Assembly (NCBI RefSeq): GCF_030704535.1
Contig: NC_081812.1
Coordinates: forward strand, 19,748,501-19,812,500
DNA from: Vitis vinifera
Taxonomy: Eukaryota; Streptophyta; Magnoliopsida; Vitales; Vitaceae
Direction: 5' to 3'
Length of the DNA stretch: 64,000 bases
Every line of letters begins with the position of its first letter. Within the stretch, counting starts at the first letter, position 1. Below the pieces are notes generated by a model, which was given only the letters and a program-made list of their open reading frames with translations, made no database searches and was not told where the DNA came from. A program made the position numbers and the translations under genes. Below, piece by piece: positions 1,150 to 61,300 of this stretch.

Positions 1150-3070
1150 TGCCAAATAATTTTTTAATAAAAAACAAAAGATGTATATACTAATGTTAAA
1201 GAAAACATGAGAAGGATGAGGAGTCCTTCCCAAAATTACAAAAAACCTGATCAAAATATGATTGAACTCCTCCACTATACAAGGAGTTTATACAAAAGGT
1301 TTACACTACAACATTGACTAAGCTCCTCTCAATAATGTCCAAACCTCTTTTATGTATCAAAAAATGTCAATTGAACTAAATAATACTAAGAGGAATGCCT
1401 TTAAAAACCTTAGTGCATGAGGCCCAAAAAGAGAAATAGAAATGAAGTAAATCCCACAACCCCTCTGTCGTACTCCACTTATCCTCAAAAATTCTAACAT
1501 TTTTCTCTTATCATACAATCCAAAACAAAGTGAGACAAGCAATTTGTCAAATGATCTTGTCTCTAATAGAGCTCTCATAACCTTTATATGAAATGATCAT
1601 CATATCGCATATACTCCTAAGTAAAGCTCAATCAATATGACTAGTCTAGATAGACAATGTCCTAGCTCTAAAGTTATCAGATAATGCAAAAAGAGAAAAG
1701 ATAGTTAATAGTCTTTTCACTCCCCCTACATAAAACACACCAATCAAGCCTAAGGGATTTGAAAAGTCTTCTCAACTATAGCATGTTGCTAGTATTTACC
1801 TTTTTATGTGTCACTAGCCAAACAAAGGCTTTGACTTTACATAAGACTTTAGATTTCCATATAAATTTCGTTAGGGAAAAAAGAACAATATCTATTGTAT
1901 TAGACAAAAACATGAAGAATGATTTAATTGAGAATAATCCTGAATGGGTCACTAACTATGCTCTCACATCTTGGGCAGATAGATACAAGCGCACAAGAGT
2001 GAGATTATATTAGACAAAAACATGAAGAATGACTTAATTGAGAATAATCCTGAATGGGTCACTAACTATGCTCTCACATCTAGAGCAGATAGATACAAGT
2101 GCACAAGAGTGAGGGATGACATAAGACTTTCAAGGTCCTCAATCTCCGAATTCATAAGGTGGTGACAAAAATTAAAATTCCAAGAAAAAAAAAAGGCCAA
2201 GAATAGCTAAAATTGTGAGATTTTTAAATGTGACAATTCTATAGACTTGAAAACTGTGAACACAAAGGTTGATCCCCTCACCACAAATCCTCCCAAAAAT
2301 GAATTTTCACCTCATCCACCACAAAACAAGTGTAACTTAAAAAAGCCTAGAACACCTATGCAATGGCCGCCTTCCAAAGACACTGATGTGACTATCTGAC
2401 TATAATGTTGGTGTCACATCCATCAAATGTGTCCCATAAATGCTTAAAATAACCTAATGTCAAAGGTAAGAACTTTCCCTAGGGAACCTCTAAAGTCACT
2501 TTCTTAAAAGAGCATGATTCCTCAGAGATCAACTCAAATCTTAGACCTTCACACTCCTTAGGTTTACACACTAGGTCTCAACAATTGAGATGATCTTTTT
2601 CACACCCCCTCTCCTCCTTCAAAAAAAAACAAAAAAAAAAAAAAAAAAAAACAGAGAATACCTCTTGCAATTTCTCATTCTTAGATGCCATTGACACTAG
2701 AATATTGAAAAGAGACGAGAAATAAGGATGTAAGATAAGCATGATTGAATTATAGTTATTCTACCCCCTAGAGACAGAAAACACTTTTTTCCATCCATCC
2801 AGTCTCCCCAAGACCGTGTCAATCATAATATCCCAAAACATAAAGGCCTTTAGATTCCCCCATAATGGAAAACCCAAGCAAGTTAATTGAGAGAGGTGCC
2901 AAATATTAGAAACATATCTAGCTCACCCCTCCAATGAGTAAGGACCCACCTAGTGGGACTTCCATAGTTCCATTGAACAACAATCTTCATATCAACAGAA
3001 CATTTTTCAACGTGATCCCTCACTTTCAGTTTAGACTAGTAGCTAAGCATGTTTTCCATATCATCAGTTC
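1150..3070 (-). mobile_element. Decayed plant LINE (non-LTR retrotransposon) remnant
   Basis: On the minus strand, short stretches in shifting frames match the C-terminal half of plant L1-type ORF2. They include a segment like LDGWKKVFS followed by MASKNEKLQE (about 2830-2680), WEDLWWGDQPL-like residues (about 2300-2250), and a terminal FKGIPLSII-like motif (about 1410-1370). The order of motifs is correct for an element read right to left. Many stops and shifts show it is old and inactive, and it carries an internal 110-bp duplication. Both ends are approximate. Confidence 0.72.
1901..2120. repeat. 110-bp tandem duplication inside the LINE remnant
   Basis: The segment starting TAGACAAAAACATGAAGAAT at 1901 starts again at 2011 with only a few differences (for example TTGGGCAG versus AGAGCAG, CAAGCGC versus CAAGTGC). 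The second copy loses similarity near 2114. Few differences between copies suggest it arose after the LINE had already decayed. Confidence 0.85.
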
Positions 3071-49302: not shown

Positions 49303-52300
49303 ATGGAGAAATATGCAGAGCTGCGGGAGGCAGTGGAGAAGGTTGAGTTAGTGGACGCCCATGCGCACAATATCGTCGCCCTCGATTCAGCCTTCCCTTT
49401 CATCGGCTGCTTCTCTGAGGCCAATGGCGATGCCTTATCCTACGCAACCCACTCCCTCTGCTTCAAGGTAACCCCTACTACTAATCCATCATTCCGCCTT
49501 CTCCTGCTCTCACCTTCCATCTACACTTTTTTCCTAAGCTTTTAGATTACCATATTTCGATTGGATGGATATTACCATTTGTCTATGTATATGAGTGTAC
49601 GCCCATATGCATAATCATTTATCTTGGTTTCTTTCTGGTTAATGAAGGCTAAGAAAAGGCATCAGGATTAGGATTCAAGTTCGTTATATTTGTTATATAA
49701 GCACATAAGATCCTATTCAATTTCTAGGAATCACCAAGAAGGCTGGATTCATCAGTTTCTTTAGACCCTATTATATATATATAAAATTCAAGAAATTCTT
49801 TATGGATTTCAACTATGAGGTAAGAGAACCAGTATAGAGTGTGATGTCGTGGTTTGTGATCTTTGCATATTGTTATTAGGGTGTGATTTCGATGCATGAA
49901 TCATTTGATATATGTATCACTATTGTGTCATCGCAATTCCCGGTTTGTTCTGATGAAATAGAATATTTCTCAAGAGTGTTTGGTTCCAATTGAATTCAGC
50001 TTTTATTTTTATGCCCGAATTGAAACACAAATATAAATAAGATATTAACTCGTACTGTTACACTGCACCATTATCCTTCAAATTGAGTTTCTGGTTTTCT
50101 TTTTTGGTTGCTGGTGGGTGTTTTGGATAGTTTTAAAAAGCATGTGTCATCTTTGGATCAACTTCTTGACACATTTTAACCTCGTTCCATTCATCATGTC
50201 ATCCTACTTCAAAACAGTGTTCCAAGCTTGGATAGGGGAGAGATGGGTAGTATCAAATTAACAACTGGGATACAACTTTCCACCAAATCTCTTTGAACTT
50301 AGTACCAAAGGAATTCTTCAAGCACTCTATTTTGATGACATGTTTGCAAAAATGAAACAATAGATGTTGTAACTTGCTACTGCATGTTAAGAATTTCAAA
50401 TAGTGGCTTCTGGGGCTTTCATTTTGATGGCACTGGTTTGTTCATGGCAGAGAAGTTTGAGGGAGATTGCTGAACTGTATGGCTCCGAGGTATCTTTGAG
50501 TGGAGTTGAAGAATATCGTAGATGCTCAGGGTTGCAATCCATTACTTCAACTTGCTTTAAAGCTGCAAGAATCACTGCTATACTGATTGATGATGGAATT
50601 GACTTTGACAAGAAGCATGACATCCAGTGGCACAGGAACTTCACACCCATTGTTGGTAGAATATTGAGAATTGAGCATCTTGCAGAGAAGATACTTGATG
50701 AGGTGAGTAATTTTGGTCTGCCTACTTTTATGGTTACAAGTACTTAATGACATAGTAATCTATCATTAGCTTGCTCTTTTTGTTGCAAATGCATTTTATA
50801 TGATGCTGTGCATTGTCCTATTTCCCAGTGATGAGAAAACTTTAGATTCAGTTCTACTCTAGATTTAGAAATTTATAATGACCCAGTAGTTCTTCCCTTT
50901 GGTTTTAGCATTTTTATATCAACCTCAACCTTTAAATTCTAGACTTATGTTCTGTGTTCATTGATATTTATTTTTCCCTTCTTTGGCATTAATGGGATTT
51001 CATCTCAACTTCTCAGCTAGAATTGTTCTTTTAGATACATCAAATGATGGATCCATAAGCTTTTTGTCCTCCTTTTTTTGTTCTTTTAGGAGGCGCCAGA
51101 TGGATCTCCATGGACATTGGATGTCTTCACTGCTATCTTTGTGGGAAAGTTAAAATCATATCCTCTTCATATTTCATAGTGGATTTCTTCTGCTAGTTGT
51201 CAAAATATGTATTAAAATTTGATTCTTGCTTCTGTTAGTTTCCTTATCATCTGTTACAGTTGCTGATGGGATCTCTGGCTTGAAAAGCATAGCTGCATAC
51301 CGTAGTGGTCTTGAAATTAATACAAATGTCAGTAGACAGGATGCCGAGGAAGGTCTTGCTGAAGTTTTATATGGTGAGTTTCCCATTTGAACAGAGGTTT
51401 CATTGTATCCACCATATAATATGTTAATCAATCCCTTTCTTTTCTCCAGCTGGGAAGCCTGTCCGCATCACAAATAAAAACTTTATTGACTATATCTTCA
51501 CTCGTAGTTTGGAGGTCGCTCTATGCTTTGACTTGCCAATGCAGCTACACACTGGGTAATAGAAAGTTTTAGAATTGTTGAACTATTGTTTCACCTTATG
51601 CTCTTTTGATGTCTTAGGAAATATAGGAAAAAAAACTAGAAACTTGGAAATTTTAACAGGACAATGGAGTGGCTATTTTAAGCTTCCAAGTTTTCATTTT
51701 GTTGCCTTATGATCAACAATCAAGCATATCACTAGGGCAGTCTGTTTCTCTCTGTACTACTTGGTTATCTTTTTTCTGAATATATTGTTTCCTTCTTCCT
51801 TCATTTTCCTGCTGTTAGGTTCGGAGACAGAGATTTGGATTTGAGGCTGGCCAATCCACTTCATCTCCGTACTCTTCTTGAGGACAAGAGATTTTCCAAG
51901 TGTCGTATAGTGCTTTTACATGCATCCTATCCATTCTCAAAGGAAGCATCATATCTAGCCTCTGTTTATCCTCAGGTAAAATATTTGGAATTCAAATAAA
52001 TACTTCTTAAAAATGTATTATGGTGTTGAGCACAAAATTTCCCATACAGATCAATTGCCTTCACTTTCAGGTCTACCTTGACTTTGGTTTGGCAATTCCC
52101 AAGCTTAGCACCCATGGTATGATATCTTCAGTCAAAGAACTTTTGGAGCTTGCTCCAATCAAGAAGGTGAGTTCTTATGCATTTGGGAGTATATAGTATA
52201 AAAGTTTATTATAATAATTGTTTAACAATTATGATAGGCTTAGGAGATCCAAATACTAAATTAATATTTTTATAATTGAACCGGTCATTGAATCGGAAAA

Positions 52301-55300
52301 TTTACTGGTTCATGGTTCAATGGTCGGATCAGTGGTTGAACCGTGGTCGAACTGGTGACGTAATAAATATATAATTTGTAAGATTAAAAAATAATAATAA
52401 TTCATTCTTTATATTTGATGTTATTAAATTAAATGGTAAAGATAAATATAAATGTATTAATATTTTAAATTTTATTAAATAAAACACATAATATTTTAAA
52501 GAAAAATTATAATATTTAGTTTTATCTACATGTCCAAAATTGTATATCTTATTATTTTATAATTTTAAAAAATGTTATATTATTTTCATAAATATTATTA
52601 TATGATAAGTATAATTATTTAAGGGTTTTAAATAATAGAAATTTGAAAGAAGCATTACTTTAATATATGATGTTTTACAATAATAGTTAACAAGATGCTT
52701 TCATATCCCAATAGTCTAATCCTTAGGCAAGCAAAAAATATTTCTACTTCCTACATAAATCCCACATCAGAAAGTCATAAGCTACGCAATAGAAAACATA
52801 GGTATAAATACCCCTTGGAACTCTGGAGCAGAAACCAAAGGGGCATGGGTCAAAAACATTTGGCCCAATGAGGCGTGACCTGTTCTCCTTATGGGCCAGA
52901 ACCAATAGGCCCAATGATAAGCACTCAAATATTAAAATTTTTTGAAAAAAATAGGCTTGAGTGGTTCCTGGAGAACCAGCCGGTTCATGCGGTTTGACGG
53001 TTTGACCATTGGTTTGAACGGTTCAACCCCGGTTCGATCCAAGAATGGTTCAACTAAGGTGACCGGACCGGAGAGGCCGCCAATTGATGATCCGATTTTA
53101 AAACATTGTACTAAATCTCTTTAAAACAAATTTGCAATATTGGAGTTGGTCCAAGTGGAAAGAGAGTTGTTCCATTTTTAAGTCGATAAGGGGTGAGGCA
53201 CATTTATAACATTGAAACTCATACTTCTAACAACATTTACACATTGTAGGCATGCATCATTACCTGTACGATTGGTCTTGAGTATGGATCAAACCTGGTG
53301 TCTAGGTGTCATTGATACAGGAAGAGTGCAAAGATTTAACTTATTTTGACTAGATTAATAGGGATTTATGGAAAATTCAGAAATCATATGCTTGGAGGAA
53401 AGTCTTGGATTACCTATATTTTTCTTTTGTTAACACATTTAACTTATCTAATAGTTTGAAAAGTTTGTGATGGGTTTAAGTTCCTATTTAGGATATAGAA
53501 GGATGCCTCATCCTTCTAAATAGGGAGTTTATGTAACGAATCATGATTTAGGTTTGAGTATTTCTTCTCCTGCAACTTCTTCACCAGAATTATGCAGGTC
53601 CTTCACTACATTTCATTTGTACAACAAGATAACTGATTTTCACAATTAAACCTGAACACATTTTGGAAGTTCAAATAACAGAATGTGTATTTTCTCAGTT
53701 ATTGTATTCATTTATCTCATTCACAATCCTGTAGCAGCTAGCATTTTGTTTCAGGTATCTTCTATATTTATTTCTCTATATTCAAAACACTCATGATTTA
53801 TCTAATTGAATTTATGAATTTGCTTTAGTTATGAATTTGATTTTATCTATGTCATATCAATATGCATTAGCTTCTAGCTATTTGCCATACTAATGCTCAT
53901 TTGGTTTTAAATATTTGCAAATTTCTTCACATGTATGAATACTTTAGGAGGTAGGATTCTGCAATAATGTCCAGAAGAAGGCCAGTATTAGACTTTCATT
54001 GTGTATTTAAATTGTTTAGTTTGCACCACTAACACGTATGGATGAATTTTCAGGTGATGTTCAGCACTGATGGGTATGCATTTCCTGAAACTTTCTACTT
54101 AGGTATCTTTAACTAATTGTCTATTAATACAATATCCATTCTTGATGATAACTCTAGTTTCAGGATTTTATGCAATGAATCAATGCCTTGTTCTAGGCCT
54201 TCTATTCCTTGCATTCAGAATAGCAGATTTCTGACATCAATTTCAATTTTCATGTTGCATTTTGCCCACTTATGTGCAATGATGCTTCTGAGAAGCCTGG
54301 TTTTCTGGAAGCTAGCAGTCATCACCTGCCCCTTGATACATGTTAATATGGCAAGGAAAATTTAAAATTTATGAACCAGATGGTACAGTAGCTCTATGGT
54401 GTTATTTAAAATTGTAATTTTAGAGCGACAAGGATCTTGTATTAAGCTTGAAATTTATAGAAAACTTGTTCCTTAGAATGTGACTTTGGATTGTAGAAGA
54501 ATAAATGGCCTCCAATAAGATCTATGCAAAGAAATTAGTCAGTCCTTTGTCATAACAAAAATAACTAATTCACATCTTGTGTCCACAATTTATCATATTT
54601 TTGGTAATTTCTTGGTCATATCATGTTTGAGTTTATTTCCTATATTCTCATACATTATATTGTAAACCCTGGGTGTTATGTCAGGGGTCTTTTTGGCAGT
54701 CTTTTCTTTCTTTTCCTTTCTTTTTGGTTCTTCATTGTTCTTGTTTGTTATTCAAAGGATTCTGCATCCTTCATGCCATATATTTTATCACTGTTTTTTG
54801 TGATAAAATCTTGTTCCTTGTAAATGAGGGTGTGATAGTGTTGATGTAAATAATGAACATGTAAAAAATCAATGTGAGAAGCATTGCTATCATCCATCTT
54901 TTGAATTGAGTTGTGAAGTTGTAAGATACTACTGGTTGAAAATCAATTCTGTGAACATATTTTCTCTGTGGTTAAAAGGACAATCAGGGGATATATCTTT
55001 GTGTTGGACTTACAGGGACAAAGTAGGTATGTCATTAATCACTGAAAAGTTGCACTCTTCGTGTTCTTATATTATCTACTAAATTTATTTGACAGGTGCA
55101 AAGAAAGCACGTGAAGTTGTCTTTACTGTTCTACGAGATGCATGCATTGACGGTGATCTCTCAATTCCTGAAGCTGTGGAGGCAGCTGAAGACATCTTTG
55201 CTAAAAATGCAATTCAGTTTTACAAGCTAAATGTAGCTATGAAGTCTATTGATTTGAAGAATGCTATATGCCCTAAGCTCATGAGCATAGGCAATAATTC

Positions 55301-58300
55301 CTCACAAAATGACATCACACTTGTTCGCATTATCTGGGTTGATGCTTCTGGGCAGCAAAGATGCCGTGTAAGTTCTCTCCTTATGTTTTTTATTTTCCTT
55401 TTTTGTTTGTTTGTTTCTTGTTTTCTCTTTTTGAACAACATGCTGGTTAGAGCTTTGAAAATTAATTGCTTGGTGAAATTAATACTGAAATACCTTTCCC
55501 AGAAAGTAAAAGGGTAAAAGCATCATATGGAAGAGAAATCAAGCCATCCATGGTACAGCTTTGTTCATTATCGAATATTCATGAGCAAGTTGAACTTTCT
55601 GAGATCCTGAAGATGAGAATAGATCAATGTGGTTTTGTCTACCAGTTTCAACAAGGCAATTAATGGAGGGAAGCATGGATGATTTAAAACCGAAGTTTGG
55701 AAAACATAAGAGTTATCTGGAAGATTAGAAGGTTTTGGAGTGCTAGTGATAAAGACTTGGATGGCATTAAAAGTGTCAAGTTCTTTATTTGTCAGATATC
55801 ACAATAATTAGGGAACTCCACAACTGAAAAGAGATTCTTTAAACTATTAGAGATTGAATAATTTTAATATCTTCCCCCATCTCAGTTGTGTCAATTTTAG
55901 AAGCAAGTTGTTCTTTCATGAGATGATTACTTTATGCAGTGTCTTTTAATTATAGGGATGTGAAGACAAACACCTTAATGATGGAAGAATAAGAAGAACT
56001 AGGTTTGTTAAGCTACCAACTTTTTTAAAAGCTTAAGCTGTTAGAATATAAGCTCACAAAGTATGCCACGCTAACACCCTCGTGCAATCCTATACAAACA
56101 CATGAGAGACAAAGTAACAGTTCTGGATTATTTAATCATCTCTATTCCTACCTTGTTAAGCTACCAACTTTTCTAAAAGCTTTAAGCCATTAAGATATAG
56201 ACTCACAATGTACACCAGGCTACACAGTTAAAAATTGGATTTGAGTCGTAGACTAGGCAAATTCCTCTCTTTCCTCTATTGTACTCTTCCCTCTTTTGCT
56301 TGAGCCAATTCATCTTTAAATGTACAATGTCCTTATGGTAGTGTAGAAAGAAAAATGACAAAAGAACATATTTGCTTCCATTAGACAAAAGTTCAGGTTT
56401 TGATTTGTAACTTCTCTAGAATAATCAACTGGCTATATTATTTAAAAACATAGACAATATTTTTCAGTCCTTAAGAATTCTCAAACTGTCCGGGCGTGGC
56501 GTGTTTATTATTCTTATCACAAATTGAATAATTTATGTTCTATATTTTGTAAAATCCAATTTGTTTGCTAAGGTGAAATATAGCTTGACTTTCTGTGCAA
56601 TTGTTGTATATAATTGTTTCAGGTTGTGCCAGCAAGACGCTTCTATGATGTTGTTTTGAAGAATGGTGTAGGTCTAACGTTTGCTTGTATGGGAATGAGT
56701 TCAGCTATTGATGGTCCAGCTGATGGGACCAATCTGAGTGGAGTGGGTGAGACCAGACTGGTTCCTGATTTATCAACCAAGTGTAGAATTCCATGGTACT
56801 GAATAATTTGATGCGGCTTTCAATGTTCCTCTGCATTCCTGGATATTTCCATCTACTCTTTGTGGTTGAGTTTTCCATCTGTACATTATCTTATGTTTAT
56901 CCCTTTATTCTATATCCCCACTACTGGTTATTGAATATTGAAAATGGAAGATGAAAACCCTTTACTCGTTATCTCCCTTTGAATGAGGTACAGTCAAACA
57001 GGGATGCATATGTATCATAATATCTGCAATTGTCAAATCATATATCAGATTGTCAATTTTGTGCTTCTCTTTGTCTTGTATATGATAGGATAATGCAAAT
57101 TTGAAAGAAACGGAAAAATATATGCAAAGGATGCCTAATGGTTTGGAAATTAATAAATGCTGAGTAAAGTGCTGATAAATCATGTAATCGGATAACTTTA
57201 AGTTTGTTCTCGTATTTTACAATCATAAAATTTTGTAGTTTCACTTGTTTCATGTTCATTTGCAATTCTGTCAGTATAATTATGCATAAGCTCATTACTA
57301 CTGTATAAATCTACTGAGTACTGATGAGTTATATATCTACAATTAGAATTTATATATTTTAATGGTTATTGGATGAGACCATTTGAGCTGGAAACATTAT
57401 GTTATTGTAACTGAATTTCACTGATTTTAATGCCACTTCTTTTCCTCATAGGGCAAAACAAGAGGAAATGGTTTTGGCTGACATGCACCTTAAACCTGGG
57501 AAACCATGGGAATACTGCCCAAGAGAGGCCTTACGAAGGATTTCAAAAGTTCTGAAAGATGAATTTAACTTGGTATGTTGGATTGTTTATATCTAAAATG
57601 TGAAATGCCTTTATTGTTCCGTTACCAATTTTTTTAATTGTTCAGGTAGTGAATGCAGGCTTTGAAGTTGAGTTTTATCTCTTGAAGAGGATACTAAGGT
57701 ATGTGAAGCTATCTTCTATACCTCTGTATGTTAAGATTCCCATGTCACTTTGCAGTCATTGTTAATGGTCTCTGCAGGGAAGGGAAAGAAGAATGGGTGC
57801 CATTTGACTCAACCCCCTACTGCTCTACATCAGCATTTGATGCTGCATCCCCTATTTTTCATGAAGTTCTTGCTGCTCTCCAATCCTTGAATGTTCCAGT
57901 GGAACAGGTAAAGAAGAAAATTTGTTGTGCAGATACTTACATGAAATAATTTTTCATACGTATTTACTTCATCTTAATTAAGCTACTCAAAAGTTTTATT
58001 ATGGAATACTTCTCTATTGAACTTGAATTCTATTACTATTCCATTTTCTTCTTCTTTCATTGTTTTAGCATGAGAGTTAAAAGTCAACATATAGTTGCAT
58101 CTTATAACCATAATCATGAGGAGGAACTAGTTAAGGTGTTCCCTATGAGTGGGCATTTTACTGGATCCAGTTGCAGGGAAAAATCGCATAGATTACCTAG
58201 GGATTCATTGGAAGTGATGTGTTGCATCCACATTTGGTGCAGTGAGAAGTAGATAACATTTTCCCCACTATGGCTATCGATGAGAAAGCTAATTCCAGTG

Positions 58301-61300
58301 GAGAAGGTTTCATTTAGCAATGTTGAACATAGGAACACCAACAGGCAAAAGAATGAAAGTGTTAGATTCCATAGGGGTATAAATATAACTTGTCTGCAAA
58401 CAACTAAGAAATGGAAAACATCAGATACCATAACAGCTGTGGTCGTTGATGCTTAATTGACTGTTCCATGCTTTTTCTTTGTTTTGATCTCTCTCTTCAA
58501 TTAAAATATTGCTGACCTTTGCCAACTCTTTTGGCTCTTTAAATGTTGTAGCTCCATGCAGAAGCTGGGAAAGGTCAGTTTGAAATTGCTCTAGGGCATA
58601 CAGTTTGTAGTTGCTCTGCTGACAACTTGATTTTCACCCATGAAGTTATTAAGGCCTGTGCAAGGAGACACGGGCTGTTGGCAACCTTTGTTCCAAAGTA
58701 AGCCTGGTTTTGTTAGAATATGCTAGATACTTGTTTTCTTGTATGCAGAAAGTTATAAATCTTAATTAAATTTGATCCATGTCTAATCTCTCAAATTTTT
58801 ACTTTTTTATTTTTGAAAAATTTATTTTTCTTTGGGGGTTGGGGCTAGTAGGGGCATGTGGTGTAATACGAATTTGGGGATGAATATACTAGTGGAAAAT
58901 AAAAGTTTCATATTCATCACAAGGGTATGAGTTGCATGATTTATATAAATACTTATTTTATCATTCAACATTTAACGTCCTTGGTATCTATACAAAGATA
59001 TTGAAAGTTTAGATAATCATTCATGAAACTACCTTGGGGGGGCAGGGGGGTTGTGTGGTGTGGGATGTGGTGGTTGAATAGGTAGTCCTGTTTTTTCAGC
59101 CAAAAAATTGATTTTTTTTTTTTTTTGACAGTATAAGTATTCTTTGATCAATATGAGATATTAGATATCATGACCTAGATCAATCCTACAATAGACATGT
59201 GATGTATGTGGAAACCACCTCCAAAAATCTATAGAGGTAGAAAACCACGAGTCTCAATCAACCATAAAGTAAATCTACTAAATATGAAAACGAAGTACAC
59301 TGATTTACCTGACCCTAATGCAACTTTCTCCTAAAGGAATTACTTTACCCAGCACCTACACTTTGCTTTCACATCCTTGATGTGACATCTTGTGCTCTTT
59401 AGTGGACACCTCAACAACTTGAGGCAATGTTATCAACTCATCAATGCCATTCCATCAAAAGGACTTTTAAGTTTCCAACTAAATTGATTTTTGAGAGTTT
59501 AGGAACTATGGTGAATTAATGACAAAATAATATATTGTTTTCTTTTAGCATGTGTCCTTCCTCCTCTAGGGTTATGAAAAATATTTTTCCTTTTATAAGC
59601 ATAAAACCCTAATTAGAATACAATAGGAAGCTTAATAAAGCTGGAAAGTGAGAGAACCAATAAGGAAACCAAAATTTTAAACTTCCTTAAATTTTTTAGA
59701 CTTCCATTTACATTAAATTCAATCATTAATTTTTCATTACTTAACCAGATCCAAAATCACATACCTTAATTTGATTTACGTCCTTCAAATTTTAGTCTTG
59801 CTCTTCAAGCCAATAAGTCCTTTAAATGTAGTGGCATTGGATTAAGTGCTTTTAGAACAAAATGTGAACATAATCTAGCCATGCTAGTACATTAATAGAT
59901 ATTATTTGGTATCATTCTTTTGCTTGTATCATACATGTCACCTCGCCTAAACTTGCATCGCTGATTTAAGTAGCAACTTAACTGTTAAATCATGCTTGAA
60001 TTATAACCAGAAAACAGCTAAACTTTGTGGTTTAGACTAGGTAGCATTTATCTGTTTAGGTTAAACTTTTACATCTAGAGAGATTTTGCATGTGACCATG
60101 GGCTCTCATTCTGAGGGCGTGATTTTAAAACCTCAAAAATATATTTCTCTCTTTAAAACAGGAAATTCTAAATCTCTTATTGCAAATTATATTGTGCCCT
60201 ATCCAGCCTTCCTCTCACTTGTCTTGCATAGTATATTTTTATTAATGACCATTTTTCTCCTCCACATCATTTATGTTGGATTGGTGAACTATTACAAACA
60301 TCTCTTCTTCATCTCATCATATGTGGAGTAATCTTATGTCCTAGTTGTAATAATAGTACTCCTGGTTGCCCACCTAACCCATTCAACATCGTGGTCTTGC
60401 CTACATGTATTTTATGGATCTCTCTCTATCTCTGTATCATCTTGAACTCTTTGATATCTTGTTTTTTAGTTGTATAATAGTTTGCTTTTTGTAGAATTTC
60501 TGATTTGGAACAAGATAGTAACATAATATTCTCGAACCACTTATTTTAACGACTATGCTTTATTCTTGTAGGCATCAACCTTTCTAGGTCCTTTTTGAAT
60601 AGAACCAAGTGCCACAAGGTGGTTGCTTGAAGGCTCCTATTGGCCAAAAGATCTTAACTATCTCCCACCTTTTATCCATGCAATTCACCAATCTTTAATC
60701 CTGTAGGCATCATCACCTTTTTTGGTCATAAACAAAAAGGTATTATGTGTAAAGGAAGTTATATGCAACAAAAGATGGGGTATCCTGCTATCCATGAAAA
60801 TGCATAGCAGAAGAATGCATGGATCATCCTCTTTAGTTTTCCTCTTTATGGATCAAGAATCAAAGCACCAACATAGTTACTCCAAGGTATTGTAAAGTAC
60901 CCTATGACAAACCTATGTTATTCACCCAAAAGGGAGAGTGAATCAAGTGATGGTATCTTTTCTAACTATTTGCTAGTTTATACTTTAAACACAAGGTATA
61001 TGGATGTTAAGCAAAATAAGAAGTAATGAAGTAAAGATATCAAGACATGGAGAGTGCAAACAATGATTTTAATATGGTTTGGCATGCTCTTATGCACTTG
61101 CACGACCTCAAGCTCCAAACCAAGCATTAAGGTCCACTAATAAAAAATCCTTGAAACCAAGGATTCCTTCTATTTTCACTTAGTTTCTAGGTATAAATGG
61201 ATCTTTACAATCTTATTAGTGTTCTTCTAACATTCCAACTCTCTCACACAAAAGTAATAAATGTAGCTTCAATGAAATACAAGAAATAGCTTTGTAACTT

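What the first reader, a model, noticed from the sequence alone, without database searches (positions are those of the whole stretch)
51158..51257. AT-AC minor-spliceosome intron in the FluG/NodGS-like gene
The exons only join into the conserved protein if the intron runs from ATATCCTC to AC. Donor, branch-site match and branch-to-end distance all fit the U12 class. Such introns are a very small fraction of plant introns, and gene predictors that require GT-AG would mis-call this exon pair, so current models may be wrong here.
Basis: partly seen in the sequence, partly recalled or inferred. Interest (0 to 1): 0.75.

Follow-up and report, generated by a model that had tools for sequence, protein, structure and literature searches.

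The report
AT-AC minor-spliceosome intron in grape-like gene
A plant gene for a two-part nitrogen-related enzyme contains one 100-base intron of the rare AT-AC kind, probably removed by the minor spliceosome; it is a sound but ordinary example of a known class.

Summary
Window 51158-51257 (+) is a 100-nt, phase-2 intron, ATATCCTC...TTAC, in a NodGS/FluG-like gene (amidohydrolase plus glutamine synthetase). Of 20 stop-free in-frame donor/acceptor pairs, only this one gives KLKS|VADGISGLKSIAAYRSGL without gain or loss. The segment aligns with five prokaryotic homologues and PDB 2QPX, and holds K171, aligned with the Zn-bridging lysine of 2QPX. All four stop-free GT-AG pairs delete K171. Retention meets a TAG. 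The other 12 modelled introns are GT-AG. U12 and U6atac genes are present, as is a known grapevine U12 AT-AC intron (CBP20; 2731 nt here, 2733 published).

Two corrections. The branch site TTCCTTATC matches 8 of 9, but the mismatch removes the downstream branch A; the upstream A lies 11 nt from the end. The motifs alone are at chance level, in the window and genome-wide; the case rests on their falling at the junction the protein requires (about 1e-5).

Whether current annotation is wrong could not be tested; no transcript, annotation or plant orthologue was reachable. Published surveys put AT-AC at 0.06-0.09% of annotated plant introns, so interest is low.

The parts
51158..51257 (+). AT-AC U12-type intron, 100 nt, phase 2, 71% A+T
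51158..51165 (+). 5' splice site ATATCCTC (consensus ATATCCTT, mismatch at +8)
51240..51248 (+). branch-site match TTCCTTATC (consensus TTCCTTRAY; upstream A at 51246 kept, downstream A replaced by T)
51256..51257 (+). terminal AC, followed by AG at 51258-51259 (tandem ACAG; ending the intron at that AG shifts the frame to an immediate stop)
51177..51179 (+). in-frame TAG met if the intron is retained, 194 nt upstream of the next exon end
51090..51157 (+). exon 3 (68 nt)
51258..51373 (+). exon 4 (116 nt); K171 codon at 51283-51285 aligns with the carbamylated Zn-bridging lysine K166 of 2QPX
49303..58697 (+). modelled 5' part of the NodGS/FluG-like gene: 14 exons, 634 residues, 12 GT-AG introns plus this one; gene continues (GSGSHVHISLWENGENVF from 62688), not modelled

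Best explanation
It is an ordinary U12-type AT-AC intron. U11 and U12 recognise ATATCCTC and TTCCTTATC together, U6atac replaces U11 at the donor, the lariat most likely forms on A51246 (the upstream branch A), and the exons join after the first AC that follows, 11 nt downstream. This completes the metal-binding segment GLKSIAAYRSGL of the amidohydrolase half. Shown here: the exact sequence, the frame, the homologous protein segment, the absence of a stop-free GT-AG solution that keeps the metal-bridging lysine, and the presence of U12 and U6atac genes. Inferred: that the minor spliceosome removes it, which adenosine is the branch point, and that retained transcripts would be degraded because of the in-frame TAG.
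For: Of 20 stop-free pairs only AT-AC 51158-51257 restores KLKS|VADGISGLKS without gain or loss. The segment aligns with 5 of 5 prokaryotic homologues fetched, gapless with 4 and with a one-residue gap against L010 (5 fetched of 32 matching plasmid records), and with PDB 2QPX, again with a one-residue insertion in 2QPX. K171 and Y176 correspond to K166 and Y171 of 2QPX, described as the Zn-bridging carbamylated lysine and a substrate tyrosine (passages of PMC6478659). Donor 7/8, branch 8/9, distance 11 nt, against a published optimum of 11-13 nt (passages of PMC3584512). Either branch A can serve (same source), and in plants an A at the upstream position, kept here, favours splicing (passages of PMC5932401, citing Lewandowska 2004). 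1 of 9 [AG]TATCCT[TCA] sites on both strands of the window is paired with a branch match, and it is this one. 0 of 12 other introns of the model pass both tests at one mismatch. Two U12 and eight U6atac matches over the Rfam cut-offs; both U12 loci carry GTAAGGAA and 3 of the 4 U6atac loci read carry AAAGGAGA. The grapevine CBP20 U12 AT-AC intron is recovered from the same genome, also with one branch mismatch.
Against: The downstream branch A is T. The best predicted duplex with U12 is weaker (-9.6 vs -11.5 kcal/mol for a consensus oligo) and leaves no bulged adenosine; the donor-U6atac duplex is weaker too (-5.2 vs -6.9) (the oligos also differ in flanks). Motifs alone are at chance level: 13 loose candidates vs 13.85 expected. 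The strict consensus pattern gives 14 hits in the genome against 24 for its reversed control. No transcript evidence. U11 did not complete (tool busy) and U4atac not tried.
Confidence: 0.93

Rival explanations
1. The segment is spliced mainly as a GT-AG intron by the major spliceosome, for example 51179-51287 or 51149-51287, giving a slightly different protein.
For: These pairs keep the frame without a stop.
Against: All four stop-free GT-AG pairs delete K171, the residue aligned with the Zn-bridging lysine, which is K in all 6 sequences of the alignment. The donors look weak by eye (AAAGTTAAA, ATAGTGGAT); they were not scored.
Confidence: 0.03
2. The AT-AC intron is real but largely retained or poorly spliced because donor +8 and the downstream branch A are off consensus, so the gene is down-tuned or decaying. 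(Not exclusive of the best explanation.)
For: Weaker predicted pairing at both sites; TAG at 51177-51179.
Against: The 14 modelled exons read 634 residues without a stop, with both Pfam domains above cut-off. Either branch A can serve (passages of PMC3584512).
Confidence: 0.06
3. AT-AC intron removed by the major (U2) spliceosome.
For: U2-type AT-AC introns exist: 0.01% of U2-type introns in A. thaliana (table passage in PMC7367187).
Against: Donor ATATCCTC fits U12 at 7 of 8, and a branch match lies at the right distance.
Confidence: 0.03

Closest known systems
U12-type AT-AC introns of plants, e.g. CBP20 intron 4 (passages of PMC5932401)
   Same: AT-AC ends, ATATCCT donor, TTCCTTRAY-like branch with the As 9-11 nt before the end
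   Different: This one is 100 nt (CBP20 in this genome 2731 nt, read; 2733 nt published for V. vinifera); donor +8 is C, and branch position 8 is T where CBP20 keeps A
NodGS / FluG / GSI-like proteins (Arabidopsis NodGS, Medicago GSI-like, tea CsTSI, Aspergillus FluG; passages of PMC9909507 and PMC6478659)
   Same: N-terminal amidohydrolase plus C-terminal glutamine synthetase; metal-site residues H20, H22 and K171 match those described for FluG and 2QPX
   Different: The two Aspergillus fluG introns lie at nucleotides 1126-1176 and 2420-2472 (passage), far from the K192 codon; introns of plant orthologues were not examined

Membership tests
U12-type AT-AC intron | 5' splice site ATATCCTT | tested here: met
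   ATATCCTC, 7 of 8
U12-type AT-AC intron | branch site TTCCTTRAY | tested here: inconclusive
   TTCCTTATC, 8 of 9, but the mismatch is the downstream A; upstream A kept
U12-type AT-AC intron | short branch-to-3' end distance (optimum 11-13 nt) | tested here: met
   11 nt from A51246 to 51257 (passage of PMC3584512)
U12-type AT-AC intron | AT and AC termini at the junction the protein requires | tested here: met
U12-type AT-AC intron | host has minor-spliceosome snRNAs | tested here: inconclusive
   U12 and U6atac found; U11 unanswered (tool busy), U4atac not tried
U12-type AT-AC intron | excision depends on the minor spliceosome | not testable with these tools
   needs RNA from minor-spliceosome mutants
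NodGS/FluG-like protein | amidohydrolase and glutamine synthetase domains in one protein | tested here: met
   PF04909 and PF00120 above cut-off, PF16952 below it; 2QPX relative

The most novel reading that the evidence does not exclude
The off-consensus donor (+8 C) and the loss of the downstream branch A make this intron a rate-limiting switch: its retention, which brings an in-frame TAG, would couple output of a nitrogen-signalling enzyme to minor-spliceosome activity.
Probability: 0.06. Interest if true: 0.5.

Novelty: new member of a known kind. Interest (0 to 1): 0.15.

Why it matters
It fixes the likely exon 3/4 junction of a conserved two-domain enzyme gene. A model limited to stop-free GT-AG introns here would lose the lysine aligned with the one that bridges the two zinc ions. 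Beyond this it is a routine example of a well-described intron class.

Tried and rejected
Genome-wide motif counting (strict donor, branch and AC with a 60-90 nt gap) was meant as a positive control but was not enriched: 14 matches (12 distinct donors) against 24 for the reversed pattern, so it says nothing for U12 introns. The genome-contig scan with the 382-residue protein confirmed no relative (0 of 143 pattern matches); plasmid records were used instead. Intron 54103-55095 has a U12-like donor (GTATCTTT, 1 mismatch), but its best branch match has 2 mismatches and lies 3 nt from the end, so it was rejected as U12. Ending the intron at the AG 51258-51259 was rejected: it gives KLKSC and a stop. 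The duplex energies are of limited use: an oligo without the upstream A scored -11.5, so they do not measure the need for a branch A. My first exon table had several boundaries off by one or two bases; it was corrected. One search covered the U12 and U6atac loci in one orientation only and seemed to miss GTAAGGAA in L012; one search shows it on the other strand.

Literature: four searches joining U12 or minor introns with this gene or family returned 0 papers. The library holds only open-licence papers, and the two key papers on plant U12 introns are not held. All papers cited were seen as passages only; PMC10639083, PMC2846911 and PMC3033335 were also looked at as passages and carry no claim here. 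Lewandowska 2004 was not seen, only as cited in PMC5932401.

Full report
What is there. Window 51158-51257 on the + strand is ATATCCTC...TTTCCTTATCATCTGTTAC, 100 nt, 71% A+T. It interrupts a + strand gene starting at 49303, of which I modelled 14 exons to 58697 (634 residues, no stop). Further coding sequence follows (GSGSHVHISLWENGENVF from 62688) and was not modelled. The modelled protein has Amidohydro_2 (PF04909, 2e-15) and Gln-synt_C (PF00120, 8.8e-25) above cut-off; Gln-synt_N_2 is below its cut-off. The Pfam amidohydrolase match starts at residue 227, so it does not cover the junction at residue 162; the 2QPX match (residues 123-345) does. This is the NodGS/FluG/GSI-like architecture (passages of PMC9909507 and PMC6478659). 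In the 495.6 Mb genome a 179-residue query found four matches, all four being exons of this gene; the tool calls such counts lower bounds.

The host. The genome has 21 contigs. From recall this size and number fit a telomere-to-telomere grapevine assembly (19 chromosomes plus two organelles). In support, the CBP20 intron that PMC5932401 gives as 2733 nt in Vitis vinifera (passage) is found here as a 2731-nt AT-AC interval (donor at 307 and AC end at 3037 of the reverse complement of L037, end and exon join read by eye). The species remains an inference.

Why AT-AC. I enumerated GT-AG, GC-AG and AT-AC pairs around the junction: 122 in all, 34 in frame, 20 without a stop (4 GT-AG, 2 GC-AG, 14 AT-AC). 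Only 51158-51257 gives KLKSVADGISGLKSIAAYRSGL. Five other stop-free AT-AC pairs share its acceptor: three delete much of exon 3, one (51155) loses a serine, one (51176) adds six residues. The four stop-free GT-AG pairs all remove K171 (codon 51283-51285). The segment aligns with five prokaryotic homologues encoded in single reading frames (four bacteria, one archaeon; 5 fetched out of 32 matching plasmid records), without a gap against four of them and with a one-residue gap against the archaeal one; likewise one residue against PDB 2QPX, E = 6.5e-32. In 2QPX the equivalent lysine K166 is described as carbamylated and bridging both metals, and Y171 as a substrate residue (passages of PMC6478659). 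The letters GLKSIAAY here give K171 and Y176, and H20 and H22 match as well. Retention meets TAG at 51177-51179.

U12 class. Donor 7 of 8; branch TTCCTTATC 8 of 9; 11 nt from the upstream branch A to the intron end, within the published optimum of 11-13 nt (passages of PMC3584512; how that source counts was not checked). The branch mismatch is not neutral: it removes the downstream A. The same review says either A can be the branch point, and PMC5932401, citing Lewandowska 2004, says an A at the upstream position favours plant U12 splicing. So the site is probably usable but below par. The predicted pairings agree: U12 duplex -9.6 against -11.5 for consensus, with no bulged A in the best fold; U6atac donor duplex -5.2 against -6.9. 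The grapevine CBP20 U12 intron, which was put into mini-genes in PMC5932401 (passage), also has one branch mismatch in this genome (CTCCTTAAT), though it keeps both As.

Is it more than chance? By motif alone, no: 13 distinct loose AT-AC candidates in the window against 13.85 in random sequence, and the strict genome pattern was not enriched over its control (14 against 24). In a stricter window scan, 1 of 9 [AG]TATCCT[TCA] sites on both strands is followed by a branch match (<=1 mismatch, CCTT core) at a proper distance, and it is this one. The 12 other introns of the model are GT-AG and none passes both tests.

Machinery. Two U12 matches and eight U6atac matches pass the Rfam cut-offs. Both U12 loci carry the branch-pairing GTAAGGAA. 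Of the four U6atac loci read (of eight), L013-L015 carry AAAGGAGA and the weaker L016 does not. U11 did not complete and U4atac not tried.

Known or new. AT-AC introns make up 0.06% (PMC6310983) to 0.092% (PMC7072748) of plant introns in annotation surveys, and 26% of U12 introns in A. thaliana by one count (PMC7367187), although PMC5932401 cites 4.8%. Four searches joining U12 or minor introns with this gene or family returned no paper, but the library is partial and no annotation was at hand, so I do not claim the intron is unannotated. The finding is correct and well spotted, and an ordinary member of a known class.

Noticed in passing
window 54103-55095: Another intron of the gene begins GTATCTTT, one mismatch from the U12 donor, but lacks a U12 branch site; probably U2-type.
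   Followed up: partly
L006-L010: In five of five plasmid homologues fetched (Allomeiothermus, three Deinococcus, Haladaptatus) the amidohydrolase gene lies directly downstream of a glutamine synthetase family gene: the two halves of the plant fusion protein as neighbours, in reversed order.
   Followed up: partly
window 51256-51259: Tandem ACAG at the 3' end: an AG directly follows the AC used; ending the intron there shifts the frame to a stop.
   Followed up: yes
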